Positions 795-7,929 of a stretch of 64,000 nt of DNA are shown piece after piece. The translations under genes were made by a program, and so were the position numbers. Each line of letters starts with the position of its first letter. The stretch's first letter is position 1. The stretch lies in contig DASPKU010000006.1 in NCBI GenBank assembly GCA_035627955.1, positions 186,001 through 250,000 on the forward strand. Reading direction: 5' to 3'. Under the pieces are notes generated by a model. The model was not told the origin of the DNA. It saw only the letters and a program-made list of their open reading frames with translations, and searched no databases. The DNA comes from Phycisphaerales bacterium. Lineage in GTDB: Bacteria; Planctomycetota; Phycisphaerae; Phycisphaerales; UBA1924.

Positions 795-1751
795 ATGGGC
801 TCCCGGGAATCACTCCAAGCCATTCTGGATCAAGGGCTTGTCCGACGTGTGAAGGACACTGACGCCCCCGCGCCAACCGACGCCCCGATCATCCCCACCG
901 GCATCGCCGATCTCGACGCCACCCTCCCCGGCGGCGGCCTCGCCCGCGGCATGACGCACGAGTGGGTCCTCGATGGCCTTGATGGCTTTGGGTACCCCGC
1001 CACTCCGTGGCGGTCTTCGGGCGATCAGGGCAGTTCTGAACCTTCAGTACCAAGGAAGGTGAGTAGGAGTCGCCGCGGAGCGGCGGGGTACCCAAGGGCG
1101 GGTCACCCAAACCCAGAGGTCTGGCACCCACCTCTCCTGATCCTTACGTACCTGGCCGCGCGTCCGCCGGGGCTGACGGTCTTCATCGGCCAGCGCTGCT
1201 GGCCCTGCCCGTGGACGATCGCGAAGGTCGGCCTGGACTTCTCCCGCTGCCTGTTTATCGACCCGCGCCCGGAGGAGCGCGCGTGGGCCATCGACCAGGC
1301 GCTCCGCTGCCCCGGCATCGGCGCCGTGGTGGGGGATGTCGAGGGCATGGACATGGCCGATAGCCGCCGACTCCAGCTCGCGGCCGAGGCGGGGCAGACG
1401 CTCGGCCTGCTCACGCGTCCCGCGCCCGAGATCAAGCTGCTGTCGGCATCGGGCACGCGCTGGGTGGTCTCGCCGCAGCCTGGGATGAGCGACCGCGTGC
1501 GGTGGAAGGTGGAGCTGCGGAGGTGCAAGGCCGCGGCGTTGTGGGCGGCGGCATCGGGCGGGTCGGTGCGTGAGTGGGTGCTGGAATGGGACGAGCGCCG
1601 GCGCGGCGTGCAGGTCGTGACCGGCGCGCCGGGCGAGGTGTCGGTGGATGGTGCGGGGGTGCAGGAGGTGCGGCGTGAAGCGGGTGGCGTGCGTGTGGCT
1701 GCCGATGTGGCCCGTCGATCTGGCGCGGCGGAGGTCCGCCGCACTGCATGA
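795..1751 (+). CDS. imuA: ImuA, RecA-like SOS mutagenesis accessory protein
   Basis: 318 residues. ImuA proteins are RecA-fold accessory factors that work with ImuB and DnaE2 in error-prone translesion synthesis. The recognisable N-terminal core 'GIADLDATLPGGGLARGMTHEW' region lies at about residues 36-58, and the RecA-like body resumes at 'PPLLILTYLAARPPG'. Between them is an in-frame repeat insertion (see 988-1095) not expected in the family. GAAGG lies 6 nt before the ATG. The last 77 bp overlap the start of imuB in another frame. Identity rests on motif and on the imuA-imuB-dnaE2 order, which is a well known cassette. Confidence 0.9.
   Translation: MGSRESLQAILDQGLVRRVKDTDAPAPTDAPIIPTGIADLDATLPGGGLARGMTHEWVLDGLDGFGYPATPWRSSGDQGSSEPSVPRKVSRSRRGAAGYPRAGHPNPEVWHPPLLILTYLAARPPGLTVFIGQRCWPCPWTIAKVGLDFSRCLFIDPRPEERAWAIDQALRCPGIGAVVGDVEGMDMADSRRLQLAAEAGQTLGLLTRPAPEIKLLSASGTRWVVSPQPGMSDRVRWKVELRRCKAAALWAAASGGSVREWVLEWDERRRGVQVVTGAPGEVSVDGAGVQEVRREAGGVRVAADVARRSGAAEVRRTA
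988..1095 (+). repeat. 108-bp terminal-inverted-repeat element inside imuA
   Basis: The ends are imperfect inverted repeats of about 25 bp: TTGGGTACCCCGCCACTCCG at the left, and at the right its reverse complement with two changes, ending GGCGGGGTACCCAA. The length is 36 codons, so the imuA frame is kept. Single arms of the same family (GCCGCGGAGCGGCGGGGTAC) recur at 5050-5076, 32575-32601 and 37833-37860. Confidence 0.8.
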
Positions 1752-3726
1752 GGGCGGGCCTCAGGGTGGGCAAGGTCGGCGCGAGGTCCTGCTCATGCAG
1801 GTCAAGGCCAACCAGCAGCTCGTCACGGCGTGCTGCGGCCAATGCCTCCGCGCCGGCGTGCGCCCGGGCATGACCATCGCCCATGCGCGGGCGCTGCTGC
1901 GCGACCCTGTCGTTGTCGATGCTGACCCGGGGCGCGACCGCCGCTCGCTTGAAAAGCTGGCGCGGTGGATGATGCGGTTCTCGCCCTTCGTCGCCGTCGA
2001 TCGCACCTTCGAAGATGAAGGCCGCGAGCCCGACGGCCTGCTGCTGGACCTCACCGGCTGCGATCGGCTCTTCGGCGGCGAGCGCTGCCTGCTGGGCCTG
2101 ATGAGCGCGGCGTTGACGGGCCTGCGGCTGCACCACCGGATCGGCGTGGGGCCGAATATCGCGAGTGCGTGGGCGGGGGCGCACTACGGAGGAGAGGTGG
2201 TGACGGTTGTGGGGGAGGCGCCGCCTCTTCGCTCCGAAGGAGCGCCAGAGTGTTGCCACGGGTGGAGCAAGGTCGCCTCTGGCGACCGAGCGGAACCCGT
2301 GGTGACGGGTGAGAAAGTCGGGAGCCCCGAAGGGGCGAAGGCCTCAAGTTTGGAATCCAGCGCCCCTTCGGGGCTCCAATGCTCAGCGCCCATTACCACG
2401 GGTGCCCGGAGGACCGGGGCGCGAAGCGCGTCCGCTCGGTCGCAAAGCCGACCGTCGCTCCACCCATGGCAACACTCTTCTGCCCCTTTGGGGCAAAGAG
2501 AGGCGGCAGAGGCCGACCTCACCACCTTCTTCTCCCCTCTCCCCACCGCCTCCCTCCGCCTTCCCGCGAACGTGCTCCACGCCCTTGAGGAGCTCGGCCT
2601 CGAGACCGTCGCCGATGTCCTGAAACTGCCGCGCATCTCCCTGCCCTCGCGTTTCGGGCGCATCCTGCTCACGCGTATCGACCAGGCGTTCGGGCGCACC
2701 CCCGAGTCCTTCACGCCTCTCACGGTCGAGCCGCCGCTCGTGCTCGAGCACGTGCTCGAGGGCCCGACCACCAACCCCGAGGCGATTGAGATCGTCACAC
2801 GCGAGCTCCTCCGCGGCCTCGCGCAAGAGCTCGCCCGCCGCGAGTCGGGCGTCACGCGCCTGTGCCTCCAGATCGACCGCGTCAAGGAGGACTGCCGCGG
2901 CGTTGAGGTCGCGGAAGAAGCCCTCACCCTCAGCCGCCCCTCGCGCAACGCCAAGCACCTGTGGACGCTGCTGCGCCCGCGTGTGGAGCGGCTGCACCTG
3001 GGCAACGGCGTCGAGCGGGTCGCGCTGATCGCCAAGCGGCAGCGGCGCGTGCGCCACCGGCAGGTCACGCGTGATGATTCCATGCCCGGGCGCGGTGCCG
3101 CAGGATCAGACGAGAGCCTTTCGCAGGCCGCGGGCGAGCTGATCGATGCGCTGGTGAACCGCCTGGGCGAGGACCGGGTGCTGCGGGCGATGCCGCGGAA
3201 CTCGCACCTGCCCGAGCGGGTGGAGGCATACGAGAAGATCGTGGATGAAGACAAAGGAGCCGATCGCGCGAGTGATCGGGGTGATCTTCTGGCCGCTTCC
3301 CATCAAAGCACAAAGCATCGATCGCTCGCGCGATCGGCTCTTTTCTGGTCCACCTCGCCACGCCCCAGCGTGCTGCTCGATCCGCCGCAGCACATCGAGG
3401 CGATCGCCGTGGTTCCTGATCGCCCGCCCTCGCGCATCACTTGGAATGGCGAGGACCACCTGATGATCCGCGGCATCGGCCCCGAGCGGCTGAACGAGGA
3501 GTGGTGGAAGGTCGCCCGTGCCACCGAGATGTCTTCATCTCGGTGTTCCTCAGAGACAGCGGTGCTCCCCACCAATCGGCGCGTCGTCAGCCGCACCATT
3601 GCCCCCGCGCCGGCTTCCACTGTCTACCGCGACTACTACCGCATCCAGGACAAGGCCGGGCGGTGGCTGTGGGTGTTCAAGGAGTCCGAGTCGGGCCGCT
3701 GGTTTGTCCATGGAGTGTGGGCATGA
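1675..3726 (+). CDS. imuB: ImuB, Y-family DNA polymerase-like mutasome protein
   Basis: 683 residues from the GTG at 1675, chosen because AGGAGG (1663-1668) sits 6 nt upstream and the protein then begins 'VKRVACVWLPMWPVDLARRR', as ImuB proteins do. The Y-family position-I acidic residues are absent (LPMWPVDL instead of the usual D.D.FF pattern), fitting the known role of ImuB as a non-catalytic hub that links DnaE2 to the sliding clamp. The palm ('DGLLLDLTGCDRLFGGE') and little-finger regions are present. The protein is longer than usual for ImuB because of three in-frame repeat insertions (2231-2494, 3253-3344, 3522-3545). dnaE2 begins 12 bp after the stop. Confidence 0.9.
   Translation: MKRVACVWLPMWPVDLARRRSAALHEGGPQGGQGRREVLLMQVKANQQLVTACCGQCLRAGVRPGMTIAHARALLRDPVVVDADPGRDRRSLEKLARWMMRFSPFVAVDRTFEDEGREPDGLLLDLTGCDRLFGGERCLLGLMSAALTGLRLHHRIGVGPNIASAWAGAHYGGEVVTVVGEAPPLRSEGAPECCHGWSKVASGDRAEPVVTGEKVGSPEGAKASSLESSAPSGLQCSAPITTGARRTGARSASARSQSRPSLHPWQHSSAPLGQREAAEADLTTFFSPLPTASLRLPANVLHALEELGLETVADVLKLPRISLPSRFGRILLTRIDQAFGRTPESFTPLTVEPPLVLEHVLEGPTTNPEAIEIVTRELLRGLAQELARRESGVTRLCLQIDRVKEDCRGVEVAEEALTLSRPSRNAKHLWTLLRPRVERLHLGNGVERVALIAKRQRRVRHRQVTRDDSMPGRGAAGSDESLSQAAGELIDALVNRLGEDRVLRAMPRNSHLPERVEAYEKIVDEDKGADRASDRGDLLAASHQSTKHRSLARSALFWSTSPRPSVLLDPPQHIEAIAVVPDRPPSRITWNGEDHLMIRGIGPERLNEEWWKVARATEMSSSRCSSETAVLPTNRRVVSRTIAPAPASTVYRDYYRIQDKAGRWLWVFKESESGRWFVHGVWA
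2231..2494 (+). repeat. 264-bp inverted-repeat element inside imuB
   Basis: The terminal arms of about 38 bp are inverted: GAGTGTTGCCACGGGTGGAG at left and GCTCCACCCATGGCAACACTC-type at right, each bordered by a CCGAAGG/CCTTTGG hairpin. An internal GCCCCGAAGGGGC hairpin pair is also present. The length is exactly 88 codons. The element is translated in the same frame as the related element in dnaE2 (6026-6262), so both proteins carry 'APECCHGWS', 'EPVV', 'GSPEGA' and 'SRPSLHPWQHS'. Confidence 0.8.
3253..3344 (+). repeat. inverted pair of REP-like palindromes inside imuB
   Basis: A copy of the AAAG(G)AGCCGATCGCGC family at 3253-3279 faces an inverted copy at about 3318-3344 across about 38 bp. 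The arrangement is like a bacterial interspersed mosaic element but lies within coding sequence. It adds about 31 residues (about 527-557 of ImuB) without a stop. Confidence 0.75.
3522..3545 (+). repeat. 24-bp palindrome, 'CACCGAGATG' family, inside imuB
   Basis: CACCGAGATG and CATCTCGGTG form a 10-bp stem around TCTT. It adds eight residues to ImuB at about 616-624. Near-identical copies end two other genes: 29954-29979 (methyltransferase) and 61687-61712 (solute-binding protein). Confidence 0.75.
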
Positions 3727-3738
3727 CGGAGCTAACGC

Positions 3739-6700
3739 ATGCCTGAAACCCCGATCCACAAGATCCGCCCGCACCCCGCGAAGAACCCCGAGTCACTCGG
3801 CAGCGCCGTCACCTACGCGAGCGGCCCTAGGTACGCCGAGCTTCAGGTTGCGAGCAACTTCTCGTTCCTGCGGGGGGCGAGTCACCCGGACGAGCTCGTC
3901 GCCCAGGCCGCGGCCATGGGCTGCTCGGGCATCGCGATCACCGATATCAACACGCTGGCGGGCGTGGTGCGGGCCCACATCGCGGCCAAGGAGGTGGGCA
4001 TCGGCTTCGCCGTGGGCTCGTGGATTGTGCTGGGCGACACGGAGCGCGGCAAGGCGCTGGAGTCTGAAGGCGGAAGTGGCGAAGTGGCAGAGTGGCAAAG
4101 TGGCAAAGTGAAAGAGGAGGACTGGTCTTCCAAGTCTTCACTCTGCCACTCCGCCACTTTGCCACTCAGCCACTTCCTCCTCTACCCCACCGACCGCGCC
4201 TCCTACGGCCGCCTGTGCCGGCTGCTCACCCGCGGCAAGCGCAAGGCCATCAAGGGCCACTGCCGCCTCGAGCTCGACGACGTGCGCGAGTTCAGCGAGG
4301 GGCTGCTGTGCATCGCCATCCCGCCAGCGGACCTGGAGAAGGGCGGGCCGGCGGATGGGCTGCGCCGACAACTGGCGACGCTGCGGGGCATCTTCGACGC
4401 CGACCGGCTTTCGCTCGCGACCTCGTGCATCTTCGGACCCGACGACCACGCGCGCCTGGAGCTGATCGCGGACGTCGCGCACGACGCCCGCGTGCCGCTC
4501 GTGGCCACCAATGACGTGCACTACCACGTGCCCTACCGGCGGGCGCTGCAGGATGTGCTCACGTGCATCCGCCACACGACGACCATCGACCGGGCCGCGC
4601 ACCTGCTCTTCCCGCACGCGGAGCGGTTCATCAAGGGAGCGTGGGAGATGTCGCGCCTGTTTGGCCGTTACCCGCAGGCGATCGACCGCACGATGGAGGT
4701 CTTCGAGCGTGCCCGCGAGTTCTCGCTCGATCAGCTCCGCTACGAGTACCCGCAGGAGGTCTGTCCGCCGGGCAAGACGCCGATGAGCTACCTGCGTGAG
4801 CTGACGTGGAAGGGCGCGATGGAGCGCTACAAGCGCCCGCCCGAAGACCGCGGGCTCATCGAACCCGGCGGCGCGTGGACCAGTGAGCCGGCGGGCGAAG
4901 TGGGGGAGGTGCGGAAGAAGACGAGGAAGAAGGCACGCAAGGGCTCGAGTTCCGAGAGCCCCTCCCCGAGGGAGGGGTTGGGGTGGGTTGGAGAGGCTGG
5001 CGATCAACAGCAGTTGCATGTCGCAGCTGCTGCAGGCGAGGCGAGCGAAGAGCCGCCGCGGAGCGGCGGGGTACCCAGTACTGAAGACCTCCCCGTCTCC
5101 GGCGTCGCCGGCTTAAAACCCTTCTCCTACATCCCCAACGACGTCCTGCTCCGCATCGAGCACGAGTTCCAGCTCATCGAGGAGCTCGGATATGCCAAGT
5201 ACTTCCTCACCGTCTACGACATCGTGAAGTACGCGCGGAGCAAGGGCATCCTCTGCCAGGGGCGCGGGGCCGCGGCCAACTCGGCCGTGTGCTACTGCCT
5301 GGGCGTCACCAGCGTGGACCCCGACCGCATCGACCTGCTCTTTGAGCGCTTTGTGAGCAAGGAGCGCAACGAGCCGCCCGACATCGACATCGACTTTGAG
5401 CATGAGCGGCGCGAGGAGGTCATCCAGTACATCTATGAGAAGTACGGGCGCGACCGGGCCGCGCTCACGTGCGAGGTGATTACTTACCGCGGGCGCTCGG
5501 CCGTGCGCGAGGTGGGCAAGGCGATGGGGCTGTCGCTCGACTGCGTCGACCGGCTGGCCAAGCAGATCGACTGGTGGCAGAAAGGCCCGCCGCGGGATGA
5601 GCAAATCAGGTCGCAAGGGCTGGACCCCGAGGACCCCACGATCAAGCAGGTAGCGGAGCTGACCAACGAGCTGCTCGGCTTCCCGCGCCACATCTCGCAG
5701 CACGTGGGTGGCTTCGTGATCACGCAGGGGCTGCTGGAGGAGACGGTCCCGATCGAGAACGCGGCCATGCCCGACCGCACGGTGGTGGAGTGGGACAAGG
5801 ACGACATCGACGCGATGGGCATGCTGAAGGTGGACTGCCTGGGGCTGGGCATGCTGACGGTGATCAAGAAGGGTTTTAAGTTCCTGGAGGCGGGGCTGAG
5901 CGCGGGGGAGTTGGTTGATGCTGCGCGCCCCGGATCAGCGGGGACTCTCCTGAGCCCCATAGGGGCGGCTTTTAGTAGCCCCGGGTGGAGCGAGCGTGAG
6001 CGAGCGGAACCCGGGGTTGGGTTTCGCCCCAACGGGGCGCCAGAGTGTTGCCACGGGTGGAGCGAGCGTGAGCGAGCGGAACCCGTGGTGGATGCGGAGG
6101 ACATCGGGAGCCCCGAAGGGGCGACGGATGAAAGCGCAACCGAGCCAGAGTCCGCCGCCCCTTCGGGGCTTCACAACCTTGGGCCCGGCACCACGGGTTG
6201 CGCTCGGTCGCAAAGCCGACCTTCGCTCCACCCGTGGCAACACTCAAACACCCCTTCGGGGCGGGGAACTGCCCTTGAGAACGGGCGTGCGGAGAATCCG
6301 GCCGACGCTCCCCCCTCCGGCCTCAACCTCGCCTCCATCCCCCAGGACGACCCCGCCGTCTACGAGATGTTCCAGCACGCCGACACCGTGGGCGTGTTCC
6401 AGATCGAATCCCGCGCCCAGATGTCCATGCTGCCGCGTTTGAAGCCCAAGACCTTCTACGACCTCGTCATCGAGGTCGCCATCGTGCGGCCCGGGCCCAT
6501 CCAGGGCAACATGGTCCACCCTTACCTTCGCCGGCGCATGGGGCTGGACAAGTGGGACTTCCCCTCGCCGGAAGTCAAAGACGTGCTTGGCAAAACGCTC
6601 GGCGTGCCGCTCTTCCAGGAGCAGGCAATGAAGCTCGCGATCGTCGCGGCGGGGTTCACACCCGGCGAGGCGGACCAGCTTCGCCGCGCGATCGCCGCGT

Positions 6701-7929
6701 GGAAGAAGCGGCCGGGGCAGCTCGAGCTCTTCGGCGACCGGCTCATCTCGGGCATGCTCCGCAACGGCTACTCGCGCCAGTTCGCGGAGCAGTGCTACCA
6801 GCAGATCCAGGGCTTCAGCGGCTACGGCTTCCCCGAGAGCCATGCCGCGAGCTTCGCCCTGCTCGTGTACGTCTCCGGCTGGCTCAAGCGCCACCACCCC
6901 GCCGCGTTCTGCGCCGCCCTCATCAACAGCCAACCCATGGGCTTCTACGCCCCCGCCCAGCTCGTCCGCGACGCCAAGGAGCACGGTGTTGAGGTCCGGC
7001 CGGTCGATGTGAACCTCAGCACGTGGGATTGCACCTTGGAGCCGAAGTGGCAAAGTGGCGAAGTGGCAAAGTGGCAAAGTGAGAATGCCCTGCCTTCCAC
7101 TTTGCCACTTTGCCACTCTGCCACTTCGCCACTTTCCTTCGGCCTCCACGGGCCCGCCCTTCGCCTGGGCCTCCGCCTCATCTCCGGCTTGCGCGAGGAC
7201 CATGTCAACGCCATCTCCGCGGCCGTGAAACGGCACGGCCACTTCAAAACCATCCACTCCCTCTGGATGGCCGCGCAGGTCCCCGTCGCCACGCTCCGCC
7301 GCCTCGCCAGTGCCGACGCGTTTGGCTCGATGGGCCTCTCACGCCGGCAGGCGTTGTGGGAGGTCCGCAACCTGCGTGACGAGCACCTGCCGCTGTTTGA
7401 CGCCGTCGCTGCTCCTCCACTCCTCCGCTCCTCTACTCCTCCACTCGACCACACCGACCCGCCCCCCGCGACAATCCCCCTCCCCCAGCAGCCCCCCGAC
7501 CGCGCCGTGCTCCAGGACTACGCCGCGATGGGGCTGTCCCTGAAGGCCCACCCGATTTCCTTCCTGCGCGACGCCCTCGACGGCGCCAAGGCGATCAAGA
7601 ACGAAGTGCTCAGGGACACGAAACGGACGCCGCAGGGCAGGCGCGTCTCGGTCGCAGGGATCGTGCTCGTCCGCCAGCGGCCCGGCACGGCCTCCGGCAT
7701 CGTCTTCATGACCATCGAGGACGAGAGCGGCATCGCCAACCTCATCATCCGCCCGCACATCTTTGAGAAGTTCCGCAAGGCGGCCCGCCACAGCGTGTGC
7801 GTGCTCGCGACCGGCACCGTCGAGCGGCAGGGCGAGGTGATCCACGTGCAGGTGCAGAAACTCCAGGAACTCTCCGAGGCACTCAAGCGGGACGTAGGGC
7901 TGTCGAGCATGTCGCGGGACTTCCACTAG
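3739..7929 (+). CDS. dnaE2: DnaE2, error-prone DNA polymerase III alpha subunit
   Basis: 1396 residues; DnaE2 proteins are usually about 1050-1150. The N-terminal PHP domain begins 'YAELQVASNFSFLRGASHP' (about 33). Catalytic acids are intact: 'PDIDIDF' at about 547 and 'KVDCLGLGM' at about 699. A C-terminal OB-fold region ('VSVAGIVLVRQRPGTASG') is present. It would perform lesion bypass together with ImuB. GGAG lies 7 nt before the ATG. The excess length is accounted for by in-frame repeat insertions at about residues 112-147, 408-446, 736-842 and 1102-1133, all between conserved blocks. xseA starts 15 bp downstream. Confidence 0.95.
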   Translation: MPETPIHKIRPHPAKNPESLGSAVTYASGPRYAELQVASNFSFLRGASHPDELVAQAAAMGCSGIAITDINTLAGVVRAHIAAKEVGIGFAVGSWIVLGDTERGKALESEGGSGEVAEWQSGKVKEEDWSSKSSLCHSATLPLSHFLLYPTDRASYGRLCRLLTRGKRKAIKGHCRLELDDVREFSEGLLCIAIPPADLEKGGPADGLRRQLATLRGIFDADRLSLATSCIFGPDDHARLELIADVAHDARVPLVATNDVHYHVPYRRALQDVLTCIRHTTTIDRAAHLLFPHAERFIKGAWEMSRLFGRYPQAIDRTMEVFERAREFSLDQLRYEYPQEVCPPGKTPMSYLRELTWKGAMERYKRPPEDRGLIEPGGAWTSEPAGEVGEVRKKTRKKARKGSSSESPSPREGLGWVGEAGDQQQLHVAAAAGEASEEPPRSGGVPSTEDLPVSGVAGLKPFSYIPNDVLLRIEHEFQLIEELGYAKYFLTVYDIVKYARSKGILCQGRGAAANSAVCYCLGVTSVDPDRIDLLFERFVSKERNEPPDIDIDFEHERREEVIQYIYEKYGRDRAALTCEVITYRGRSAVREVGKAMGLSLDCVDRLAKQIDWWQKGPPRDEQIRSQGLDPEDPTIKQVAELTNELLGFPRHISQHVGGFVITQGLLEETVPIENAAMPDRTVVEWDKDDIDAMGMLKVDCLGLGMLTVIKKGFKFLEAGLSAGELVDAARPGSAGTLLSPIGAAFSSPGWSERERAEPGVGFRPNGAPECCHGWSERERAEPVVDAEDIGSPEGATDESATEPESAAPSGLHNLGPGTTGCARSQSRPSLHPWQHSNTPSGRGTALENGRAENPADAPPSGLNLASIPQDDPAVYEMFQHADTVGVFQIESRAQMSMLPRLKPKTFYDLVIEVAIVRPGPIQGNMVHPYLRRRMGLDKWDFPSPEVKDVLGKTLGVPLFQEQAMKLAIVAAGFTPGEADQLRRAIAAWKKRPGQLELFGDRLISGMLRNGYSRQFAEQCYQQIQGFSGYGFPESHAASFALLVYVSGWLKRHHPAAFCAALINSQPMGFYAPAQLVRDAKEHGVEVRPVDVNLSTWDCTLEPKWQSGEVAKWQSENALPSTLPLCHSATSPLSFGLHGPALRLGLRLISGLREDHVNAISAAVKRHGHFKTIHSLWMAAQVPVATLRRLASADAFGSMGLSRRQALWEVRNLRDEHLPLFDAVAAPPLLRSSTPPLDHTDPPPATIPLPQQPPDRAVLQDYAAMGLSLKAHPISFLRDALDGAKAIKNEVLRDTKRTPQGRRVSVAGIVLVRQRPGTASGIVFMTIEDESGIANLIIRPHIFEKFRKAARHSVCVLATGTVERQGEVIHVQVQKLQELSEALKRDVGLSSMSRDFH
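4072..4177 (+). repeat. inverted array of AAGTGGC units inside dnaE2
   Basis: The left arm has repeated (A/C)AAGTGGC/AGTGGCA units and the right arm is their reverse complement (GCCACTT, GCCACTC). They are separated by about 30 bp and can form one long hairpin. The translated product contains 'EVAEWQSGKV' and 'LCHSATLPLSHF'. A sister copy in the same frame lies at 7044-7137. Confidence 0.75.
4959..4977 (+). repeat. small palindrome CCCCTCCC-CGA-GGGAGGGG inside dnaE2
   Basis: A perfect 8-bp stem with a 3-nt loop, followed by TTGGGGTGGG. It lies in a 70-80 residue stretch (about 385-460 of DnaE2) that has no counterpart in ordinary DnaE2 and also carries the GGTACC-family arm at 5050-5076. Confidence 0.55.
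5050..5076 (+). repeat. GGTACC-family palindromic arm inside dnaE2
   Basis: GCCGCGGAGCGGCGGGGTAC matches the right end of the imuA element. It is translated here as 'EPPRSGGVP', a different frame from the 'SRRGAAGYP' seen in ImuA. Confidence 0.75.
5945..6262 (+). repeat. composite inverted-repeat element inside dnaE2
   Basis: A complete element (6026-6262, 237 bp, 79 codons) has inverted ends GAGTGTTGCCACGGGTGGAG and GCTCCACCCGTGGCAACACTC-type. It is preceded by a partial left arm (about 5945-6025) with CCCCGGGTGGAGCGAGCGTG. The element shares sequence and reading frame with imuB 2231-2494. It separates 'KKGFKFLEAG' from 'LNLASIPQDDPAVYEMF', which are normally close together in DnaE2. Confidence 0.8.
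7044..7137 (+). repeat. second inverted array of AAGTGGC units inside dnaE2
   Basis: Left-arm units GAAGTGGCAAAGTGGC and right-arm units GCCACTTTGCCACT form a long hairpin. It is translated in the same frame as 4072-4177 ('EVAKWQSEN', 'LCHSATSPLSF'). A further TCCTCCACTCC-type tandem stretch lies nearby at about 7407-7448. Confidence 0.75.

What the first reader, a model, noticed from the sequence alone, without database searches (positions are those of the whole stretch)
795..7929. SOS mutasome operon densely packed with translated palindromic elements
At least nine repeat insertions of five families lie inside imuA (1), imuB (3) and dnaE2 (5), all preserving frame, over about 7.1 kb. In the other 56 kb I see only a few intragenic traces (mnmA, binding-protein gene, one methyltransferase tail). 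Conserved blocks and DnaE2 catalytic acids remain intact, so the genes look alive. This resembles Rickettsia palindromic elements, which are known to be translated inside genes, but the concentration in an error-prone polymerase cassette is striking. Possible meanings: these proteins tolerate loops; the elements insert preferentially during damage repair; or the mutasome itself helps spread them. All three are hypotheses.
Basis: partly seen in the sequence, partly recalled or inferred. Interest (0 to 1): 0.88.

Follow-up and report, generated by a model that had tools for sequence, protein, structure and literature searches.

The report
Mobile elements nested in DNA-polymerase genes
The DNA-damage mutagenesis genes of this planctomycete carry several small mobile DNA elements that read as extra protein loops, and in related bacteria a full-sized relative of one of them, with its own gene inside, repeatedly sits at one spot of the DNA polymerase gene, so that one stretch of DNA encodes two proteins.

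Summary
imuA, imuB and dnaE2 carry at least nine in-frame repeat inserts; six are long palindromes within 7.1 kb, against four clearly intragenic ones in about 337 kb of sampled coding DNA. The mutasome is not unique: valS of the same genome is as loaded. REPs inside DnaE2, DnaE and tRNA synthetases are in print (PMC3733652).

Two systems are mixed. R4 is a REP flanking RAYT genes of this genome. The two AGTGGCAA-octamer palindromes in dnaE2 look like gene-less forms of a second element: inverted 7-9-nt arrays around an IVP (S23, PF05635) gene. In relatives the full element sits in the palm-fingers linker of dnaE2 (17 of 139 dnaE2-bearing genomes among 301) and dnaE (3 of 301), twice with AGTGGC arms.

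In 19 sense-oriented, unbroken cases the IVP gene is in host frame +1 and the host frame stays open; free IVPs rarely allow this (10 of 67). Carriers are scattered on the DnaE2 tree while their IVPs cluster, suggesting repeated arrival at one site; part of the signal is vertical. Ten literature searches listed no report of IVPs inside polymerase genes. Mobility and translation are inferred.

The parts
795..1751 (+). imuA
   Evidence: NCBIfam ImuA 1.3e-19, below that model's curated cut-off
988..1095 (.). R2 palindrome (GGGTACCCCGCC... pair) in imuA
   Evidence: IR score 19; insert aa 71-108 in the 22-row alignment; R2 at other places of the genome sample
1648..3726 (+). imuB
   Evidence: Pfam IMS 5.2e-9
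2218..2511 (.). R4 composite REP/BIME insert in imuB (98 aa)
   Evidence: alignment insert; 43 matches genome-wide, window copies included, several beside RAYT genes
3253..3344 (.). R3 palindrome (GCCGATCGCGC...) in imuB
   Evidence: IR score 20; further copies in window and sample
3522..3545 (.). R6 short palindrome (CACCGAGATG...CATCTCGGTG) in imuB
   Evidence: 33 strand hits in 464 kb, reversed control 0; a palindrome, so one place can count twice; alignment insert 3523-3615
3739..7929 (+). dnaE2, 1396 aa; relatives without inserts about 1040-1095 aa
   Evidence: NCBIfam PRK05672; alignment
4068..4181 (.). AGTGGCAA-octamer palindrome 1 (core 108, in the PHP part)
   Evidence: IR score 24; 4+4 octamers
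5050..5077 (.). R2 half element in dnaE2
   Evidence: family D15
5951..6263 (.). R4 composite at the palm-fingers linker (core 581-588), the site where relatives carry IVP elements
7043..7135 (.). AGTGGCAA-octamer palindrome 2 (core 838 linker)
   Evidence: IR score 28; 4+4 octamers
7412..7455 (.). one-sided GGAGTGGA-type octamer array

Best explanation
The mutasome genes are living genes that carry selfish palindromic elements read as extra surface loops. Two element systems are present. (1) REP/BIME elements: R4, and perhaps R2, R3 and R6, moved by RAYT transposases of the same genome. (2) Two AGTGGCAA-octamer palindromes, which look like gene-less (MITE-like) forms of IVP elements, that is, a four-helix-bundle IVP/S23 gene between inverted arrays of 7-9-nt units. 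Copies are kept where they fall in frame in inter-domain linkers. In related genomes the full IVP element recurs at one linker, between palm and fingers of dnaE2 and of dnaE, in one phase: the host frame reads through and the IVP is encoded one frame over. Shown: anatomy, phase, open frames, conservation of the IVP frame, one recurrent site. Inferred: mobility of IVP elements, translation, the MITE relation, lack of benefit to the host.
For: Density and alignments. R4 motifs on both sides of the Y1_Tnp gene in 3 of 6 fetched RAYT loci; 43 R4 matches in the genome. AGTGGC octamers: 77+68 pattern matches, control 1; of 24 arrays examined 8 are in frame in genes. IVP genes flanked by inverted short-period arrays: 79 of 100 loci score above 15.0, the 99th percentile of 99 within-locus controls (maximum 31.8), and 77 of the 79 have an arm period of 7, 8, 9, 14 or 15; own genome 3 of 6 by score, 5 of 6 by eye; 5 of 5 viral contigs. 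Arms of the same AGTGGCRA octamer flank the IVP in dnaE of G301 and G305. IVP inside dnaE2 in 17 of 139 dnaE2-bearing genomes (one reversed, one with a broken host frame) and inside dnaE in 3 of 301. Host frame open in 8 of 8 polymerase-resident IVPs against 10 of 67 GC-matched free ones, Fisher 2.6e-6. IVP-frame identity exceeds host-frame identity in 28 of 28 pairs. Polymerase IVPs clustered on the IVP tree (5 changes, shuffled 19.1) while carriers are not clustered on the DnaE2 tree (13 changes for 17 carriers, shuffled 14.6). In G018, G301 and G305 one dnaE was found, the one with the insert.
Against: No IVP gene lies in the window, and none of the six IVP matches of this genome has AGTGGC arms; the nearest, L159, has AGTGACGA, one base per unit away. 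So the gene-less relation rests on build, shared octamer and shared host genes. One of the six (L162) has arrays on one side only. Flanks of different genomes as a null have a heavy tail (99% at 31.5) that only 9 of 100 loci exceed. No target-site duplication could be read. IVPs have no known transposase activity (recalled). IVP and host distances correlate (Mantel r 0.43, 61 of 5000 permutations as high), so part of the signal is vertical or among close relatives. Only R4 was tied to RAYT genes; R2 and R3 were not, R6 was not tested.
Confidence: 0.75

Rival explanations
1. Mutasome-specific accumulation: elements insert during damage repair, or the error-prone polymerase itself spreads them.
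For: About 40- to 70-fold density over sampled coding DNA; dnaE2, imuB and DNA-active enzymes recur as hosts here and in PMC3733652.
Against: valS is as dense; the replicative dnaE carries the element in three relatives; in 34 relatives' loci all 9 palindromes found inside mutasome genes lie in dnaE2, none in imuA or imuB where these are present.
Confidence: 0.08
2. One ancestral IVP insertion in dnaE2, inherited vertically and precisely lost many times.
For: Same site and phase in the 16 sense-oriented, unbroken dnaE2 cases; partial host-IVP distance correlation (Mantel r 0.43).
Against: Carriers scattered, at least 9 changes forced by starred branches; one copy in reverse orientation (G148); the same element in dnaE; close relatives without it (G022 against G061, L018 against G008).
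Confidence: 0.17
3. The inserts are functional modules selected to tune polymerase or mutasome activity.
For: Recurrence at one site next to the palm; DNA-transaction hosts; suggestion in PMC3733652 that REP-tagged repair proteins may help make mutators.
Against: Host-frame residues are the less conserved frame (0.31 against 0.53 identity); no IVP was listed in dnaE2 of the other 122 of 139 genomes (capped list); window inserts are unlike those of relatives.
Confidence: 0.1
4. Assembly artefacts or decaying pseudogenes.
For: Where titles are shown the relatives are MAGs; the dnaE2 of G091 has a broken host frame.
Against: Frames open over 3-4 kb with intact domains; cases in two-contig genomes of 99-100% completeness (G061, G070); the only dnaE found in three genomes.
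Confidence: 0.03

Closest known systems
REP/BIME elements with RAYT transposases, including REPs inside ORFs (PMC3733652)
   Same: Small palindromes, in frame in genes, in DnaE2, DnaE and tRNA synthetases; R4 lies beside RAYT genes; some R4 copies start GTAG
   Different: Several families piled up in one operon; the octamer palindromes are not built like REPs
Rickettsia palindromic elements (RPE; recalled, and mentioned in PMC3733652)
   Same: Palindromes of about 100 bp read in frame inside genes
   Different: No sequence relation tested; octamer-array build; a gene-bearing full-length relative exists
IVS of 23S rRNA with S23p/IVP ORF (PMC4990558, part 1 of 6 read)
   Same: IVP/S23 gene between complementary flanks, inserted inside a host gene at few sites
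   Different: Hosts are protein-coding genes read through in frame; 40 of 40 IVP loci scanned by Rfam show no rRNA
Inteins and homing introns in polymerase genes
   Same: Recurrent insertion at one conserved site of replication genes, scattered carriers (intein habits recalled)
   Different: No splicing domain found; the insert is kept open in the host frame

Membership tests
REP/RAYT (REPtron) family | RAYT-type (Y1_Tnp) gene in the genome | tested here: met
   10 matches, 9 over cut-off
REP/RAYT (REPtron) family | RAYT gene flanked by copies of the same repeat | tested here: met
   R4 only: motifs on both sides in L255, L256, L257 (3 of 6 RAYT loci). R2 and R3 not so placed
REP/RAYT (REPtron) family | GTAG tag at one end | tested here: inconclusive
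   GTAG at window 5975 and in copies of L255 and L257 (on the other strand in part); other copies read GTTG
IVP/IVS elements | IVP/S23 (PF05635) gene inside | tested here: not met
   Not met by the window elements (no PF05635 match on their contig); met by the polymerase inserts of relatives
IVP/IVS elements | complementary flanking arms | tested here: met
   79 of 100 IVP loci; window palindromes
IVP/IVS elements | location in rRNA genes | tested here: not met
   no rRNA at 40 of 40 scanned IVP loci; window hosts are protein genes
IVP/IVS elements | excision from the transcript by RNase III | not testable with these tools
   needs RNA
Rickettsia palindromic elements | in-frame palindromes inside ORFs, many copies | tested here: met
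Rickettsia palindromic elements | sequence membership in an RPE family | not tested
   no RPE sequences compared
Inteins | protein-splicing domain in the insert | tested here: not met
   Pfam of window DnaE2 and of L194, L337, L338 lists none

The most novel reading that the evidence does not exclude
IVP elements are a widespread class of dual-coding mobile elements (an IVP gene between inverted 7-9-nt arrays, gene-less MITE forms, also on viral contigs) that enter genes, often for DNA-handling enzymes, and are read through in the host frame. One sub-lineage homes to the palm-fingers linker of C-family polymerases, moving between dnaE2 and dnaE and between species, as inteins do but without splicing.
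Probability: 0.45. Interest if true: 0.9.

Novelty: new variant of a known kind. Interest (0 to 1): 0.72.

Why it matters
IVP/S23 genes are common orphan genes without a known role; here they get a defined element anatomy and a recurrent landing site in replication genes. The cases form a natural set of overlapping genes in which a selfish ORF and a polymerase, in three genomes the only replicative one found, share one DNA stretch, so the rules of dual coding, loop tolerance of polymerases and site choice of tiny mobile elements become testable.

Tried and rejected
Self-BLAST repeat depth over 464 kb ranked what look like conserved protein motifs, not the elements; replaced by the inverted-repeat scan. 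Pairing flanks of different genomes as a null has a heavy tail (99% at 31.5, maximum 103), probably because homologous loci in opposite orientation match each other; only 9 of 100 loci exceed it, so I rely on the within-locus control (99% at 15.0, maximum 31.8). Target-site duplications: not readable, linkers too divergent. AlphaFold2 of the palm-insert-fingers segment of a dnaE (3-row alignment) gave mean pLDDT 38 and is not used. IVP location in 23S rRNA: not found at 40 loci. The idea that a shared octamer at two sites of one dnaE2 means local hopping was weakened, because AGTGGC is a genome-wide family. Several literature searches returned off-topic lists or nothing. Rows dropped before counts: 3 of 100 IVP loci under 75 aa in the first IVP tree; 30 of 114 rows of a divergent group in the second; six dnaE2 rows (fragments, duplicates, non-planctomycetes) in the DnaE2 trees and the broken G091. 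An early note of mine said all six own IVP genes have arrays on both sides; rechecking leaves five by eye.
Full report
OBSERVATION. The three ORFs are open and recognisable. A gapless inverted-repeat scan of the window and 20 sampled loci of the same genome (464 kb) found 23 merged elements at score 18 or more, 2 with the control pairing. Six elements of score 19 to 28 lie in the 7.1-kb mutasome: 988-1095, 2247-2478, 3253-3344, 4068-4181, 6043-6245 and 7043-7135. In the 400-kb sample four of score 16 or more lie well inside predicted genes (L123:13337, L124:4650, L124:9728, L131:1434); three more at residues 5, 14 and 21 of a predicted ORF I set aside. My gene finder missed imuA, so its element is printed as intergenic and counted here by hand. 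Expected 0.085 elements, observed 6, P 4.8e-10, about 3e-7 after allowing for 597 windows of that size; the sample is 9.4% of the genome. Alignments with relatives show the inserts as extra residues in ImuA and ImuB and in DnaE2.

NOT ONLY THE MUTASOME. The AGTGGCAA-octamer palindrome is a genome-wide family: 77 forward and 68 reverse pattern matches, control 1 and 0 (the list of places is capped). Of 24 arrays examined in the window and 27 fetched loci, 8 lie in frame inside a gene: 2 in dnaE2, 3 in valS, 1 each in UbiD-family, Dus-family and Wzy_C proteins, the last a single arm. valS also has a fourth, different array (read by eye). An essential gene is thus as loaded as the mutasome. In 34 planctomycete dnaE2 loci, 9 long palindromes lie in mutasome genes, all in dnaE2 (7 of 34 loci), against 4 in 253 kb outside; of 52 dnaE2 from other lineages, 1 has one.

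TWO SYSTEMS. R4, found in imuB and dnaE2, has 43 matches in the genome. Its motifs lie on both sides of the Y1_Tnp gene in three of six RAYT loci, so it is a REP family with its transposases; some copies begin GTAG. R2 and R3 were not found beside RAYT genes. The octamer palindromes are different. Of the six PF05635 (IVP) matches of this genome, three over the cut-off, five lie between inverted arrays of 8- or 9-nt units by eye, three also by score; the sixth (L162) has an array palindrome on one side only. Over 100 IVP loci from 39 genomes (100 of the 134 matches), the flanks pair better than 15.0, the 99th percentile of 99 within-locus controls, in 79, and 77 of these have an arm period of 7, 8, 9, 14 or 15; a second null with a heavy tail is exceeded by 9 only. 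Five of five viral contigs with an IVP relative show the same build (scores 16.8-28.7).

IVP ELEMENTS INSIDE POLYMERASES. Translating inserts at the palm-fingers linker of relatives' dnaE2 revealed an IVP gene one frame over. In a PF05635 search of 61 genomes, which knows nothing of hosts, 8 of the 100 loci tested have a host ORF of more than 3 kb running through them on the same strand: 7 in dnaE2 and 1 (L194, G018) in dnaE at the homologous place. The other seven spanning ORFs are shorter, six antisense and one in the IVP's own frame, and were not confirmed as genes. A search of 301 genomes of the order with the host-frame profile A1 gave 12 more open cases with frames of 1250 aa or more: nine dnaE2, two dnaE (G305, G301) and one amidohydrolase. 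Two further dnaE2 carry it with the IVP reversed (G148, host frame still open) or with a broken host frame (G091). In all 17 of the 139 genomes with dnaE2 and 3 of 301 for dnaE, plus G008 outside this sample. These are lower bounds: one search did not list all matches. PF05635 was confirmed in the IVP frame for 10 of 10 later cases given to Pfam (E 1e-29 or better). The site falls between residues aligned to about 573 and 583 of E. coli Pol III alpha (my count on the printed alignment), after the palm motif FDFLGL (its catalytic Asp is recalled). In G018, G301 and G305 one dnaE was found, the one with the insert.

DUAL CODING. In the 19 sense-oriented, unbroken cases the IVP is in host frame +1 and no stop interrupts the host frame across the insert. 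For the eight found without using the host frame, that frame is open in 8 of 8 against 10 of 67 free IVPs of similar GC (Fisher 2.6e-6). The other eleven were found with a host-frame profile and are biased on this point. The IVP frame is the conserved one: mean identity 0.53 against 0.31, 28 of 28 pairs, with differences at IVP codon positions 1, 2 and 3 of 0.38, 0.30 and 0.54. A start with a weak SD-like motif precedes the IVP in 18 of 21 polymerase copies and 63 of 89 free ones (lenient test). The G215 copy matches the solved chain 2gsc, XCC0516 of Xanthomonas (E 7.8e-27).

HISTORY. On a DnaE2 tree of 54 rows, 17 carriers need 13 changes, at least 9 forced by well-supported branches, about as many as shuffled labels (97 of 500 as low; carriers were added on purpose, so frequency cannot be read from it). 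On the first, smaller tree 8 carriers need 8 changes. The 21 polymerase-resident IVPs need 5 changes on the IVP tree against 19.1 shuffled (0 of 500); the fork that holds all 21 and five free ones has support 82, and the three dnaE copies group with three dnaE2 copies at support 98. Hosts and IVPs still correlate (Mantel r 0.43, 61 of 5000). Repeated arrival of one IVP sub-lineage at one site, with some inheritance, fits best.

LINK TO THE WINDOW. The IVP in dnaE of G301 and G305 has AGTGGCRA arms, the octamer of the two palindromes in the window's dnaE2. In this genome the nearest IVP arms are AGTGACGA (L159). The window's own palm-fingers linker holds an R4 REP instead. I infer that the window palindromes are gene-less forms of such elements; no intermediate was found.

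KNOWN AND NEW. For the IVP side I read part 1 of 6 of PMC4990558 and passages of PMC3919608 and PMC12926913; what I saw mentions no IVP in polymerases. The rows listed by the searches show no paper on IVP genes inside protein-coding genes or on their array flanks; some of these lists were cut to 8-15 of many, and most subscription journals are not held. A phylum search added IVPs read through in two N6/N4 DNA methylases confirmed by Pfam and a third by likeness, an Eco57I-type enzyme and an FGE-sulfatase-like protein, found with the host-frame profile and so biased to that phase.

Noticed in passing
L274:585-4475 (G000 contig C11): Valyl-tRNA synthetase gene of the same genome with three in-frame AGTGGC palindromes and a fourth, different array.
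   Followed up: partly
L358, L359, L360, L361, L362: IVP genes read through in the host frame inside DNA methylases, an Eco57I-type RM enzyme and an FGE-sulfatase-like protein in other families of the phylum; the methylase of G352/G373 also shows several further array-like inserts by eye.
   Followed up: partly
L332 (G148): dnaE2 with the IVP element in reverse orientation at the same linker, host frame still open; the same genome has an IVP in an amidohydrolase gene (L331).
   Followed up: yes
L365-L369: IVP genes with inverted short-period arrays on five viral contigs, a possible vehicle between species.
   Followed up: partly
L358:2133-2528, L359:2179-2550, L360:2303-2668, L361:2197-2652, L362:65-463: These IVPs also give sub-cut-off matches to Pfam bAvd (E 2e-9 to 3e-5), a hint of kinship with Avd proteins of diversity-generating retroelements (that role recalled).
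   Followed up: no
rows, family f2 (G180, G172, G089, G081, G092): dnaE2 open frames of 1501-1639 aa in genomes for which no IVP in dnaE2 was listed; other large inserts likely, not examined.
   Followed up: no
L245:1432-2442: IVP in its own frame fused without a stop to a downstream protein that looks like IspF (recalled motif, not tested).
   Followed up: no
L119, L122, L123, L124, L125, L129; window 34737: A frequent palindrome family (AACGAGCCCCGAACGAAGTGAG, 17 strand hits in 464 kb) absent from the mutasome.
   Followed up: no
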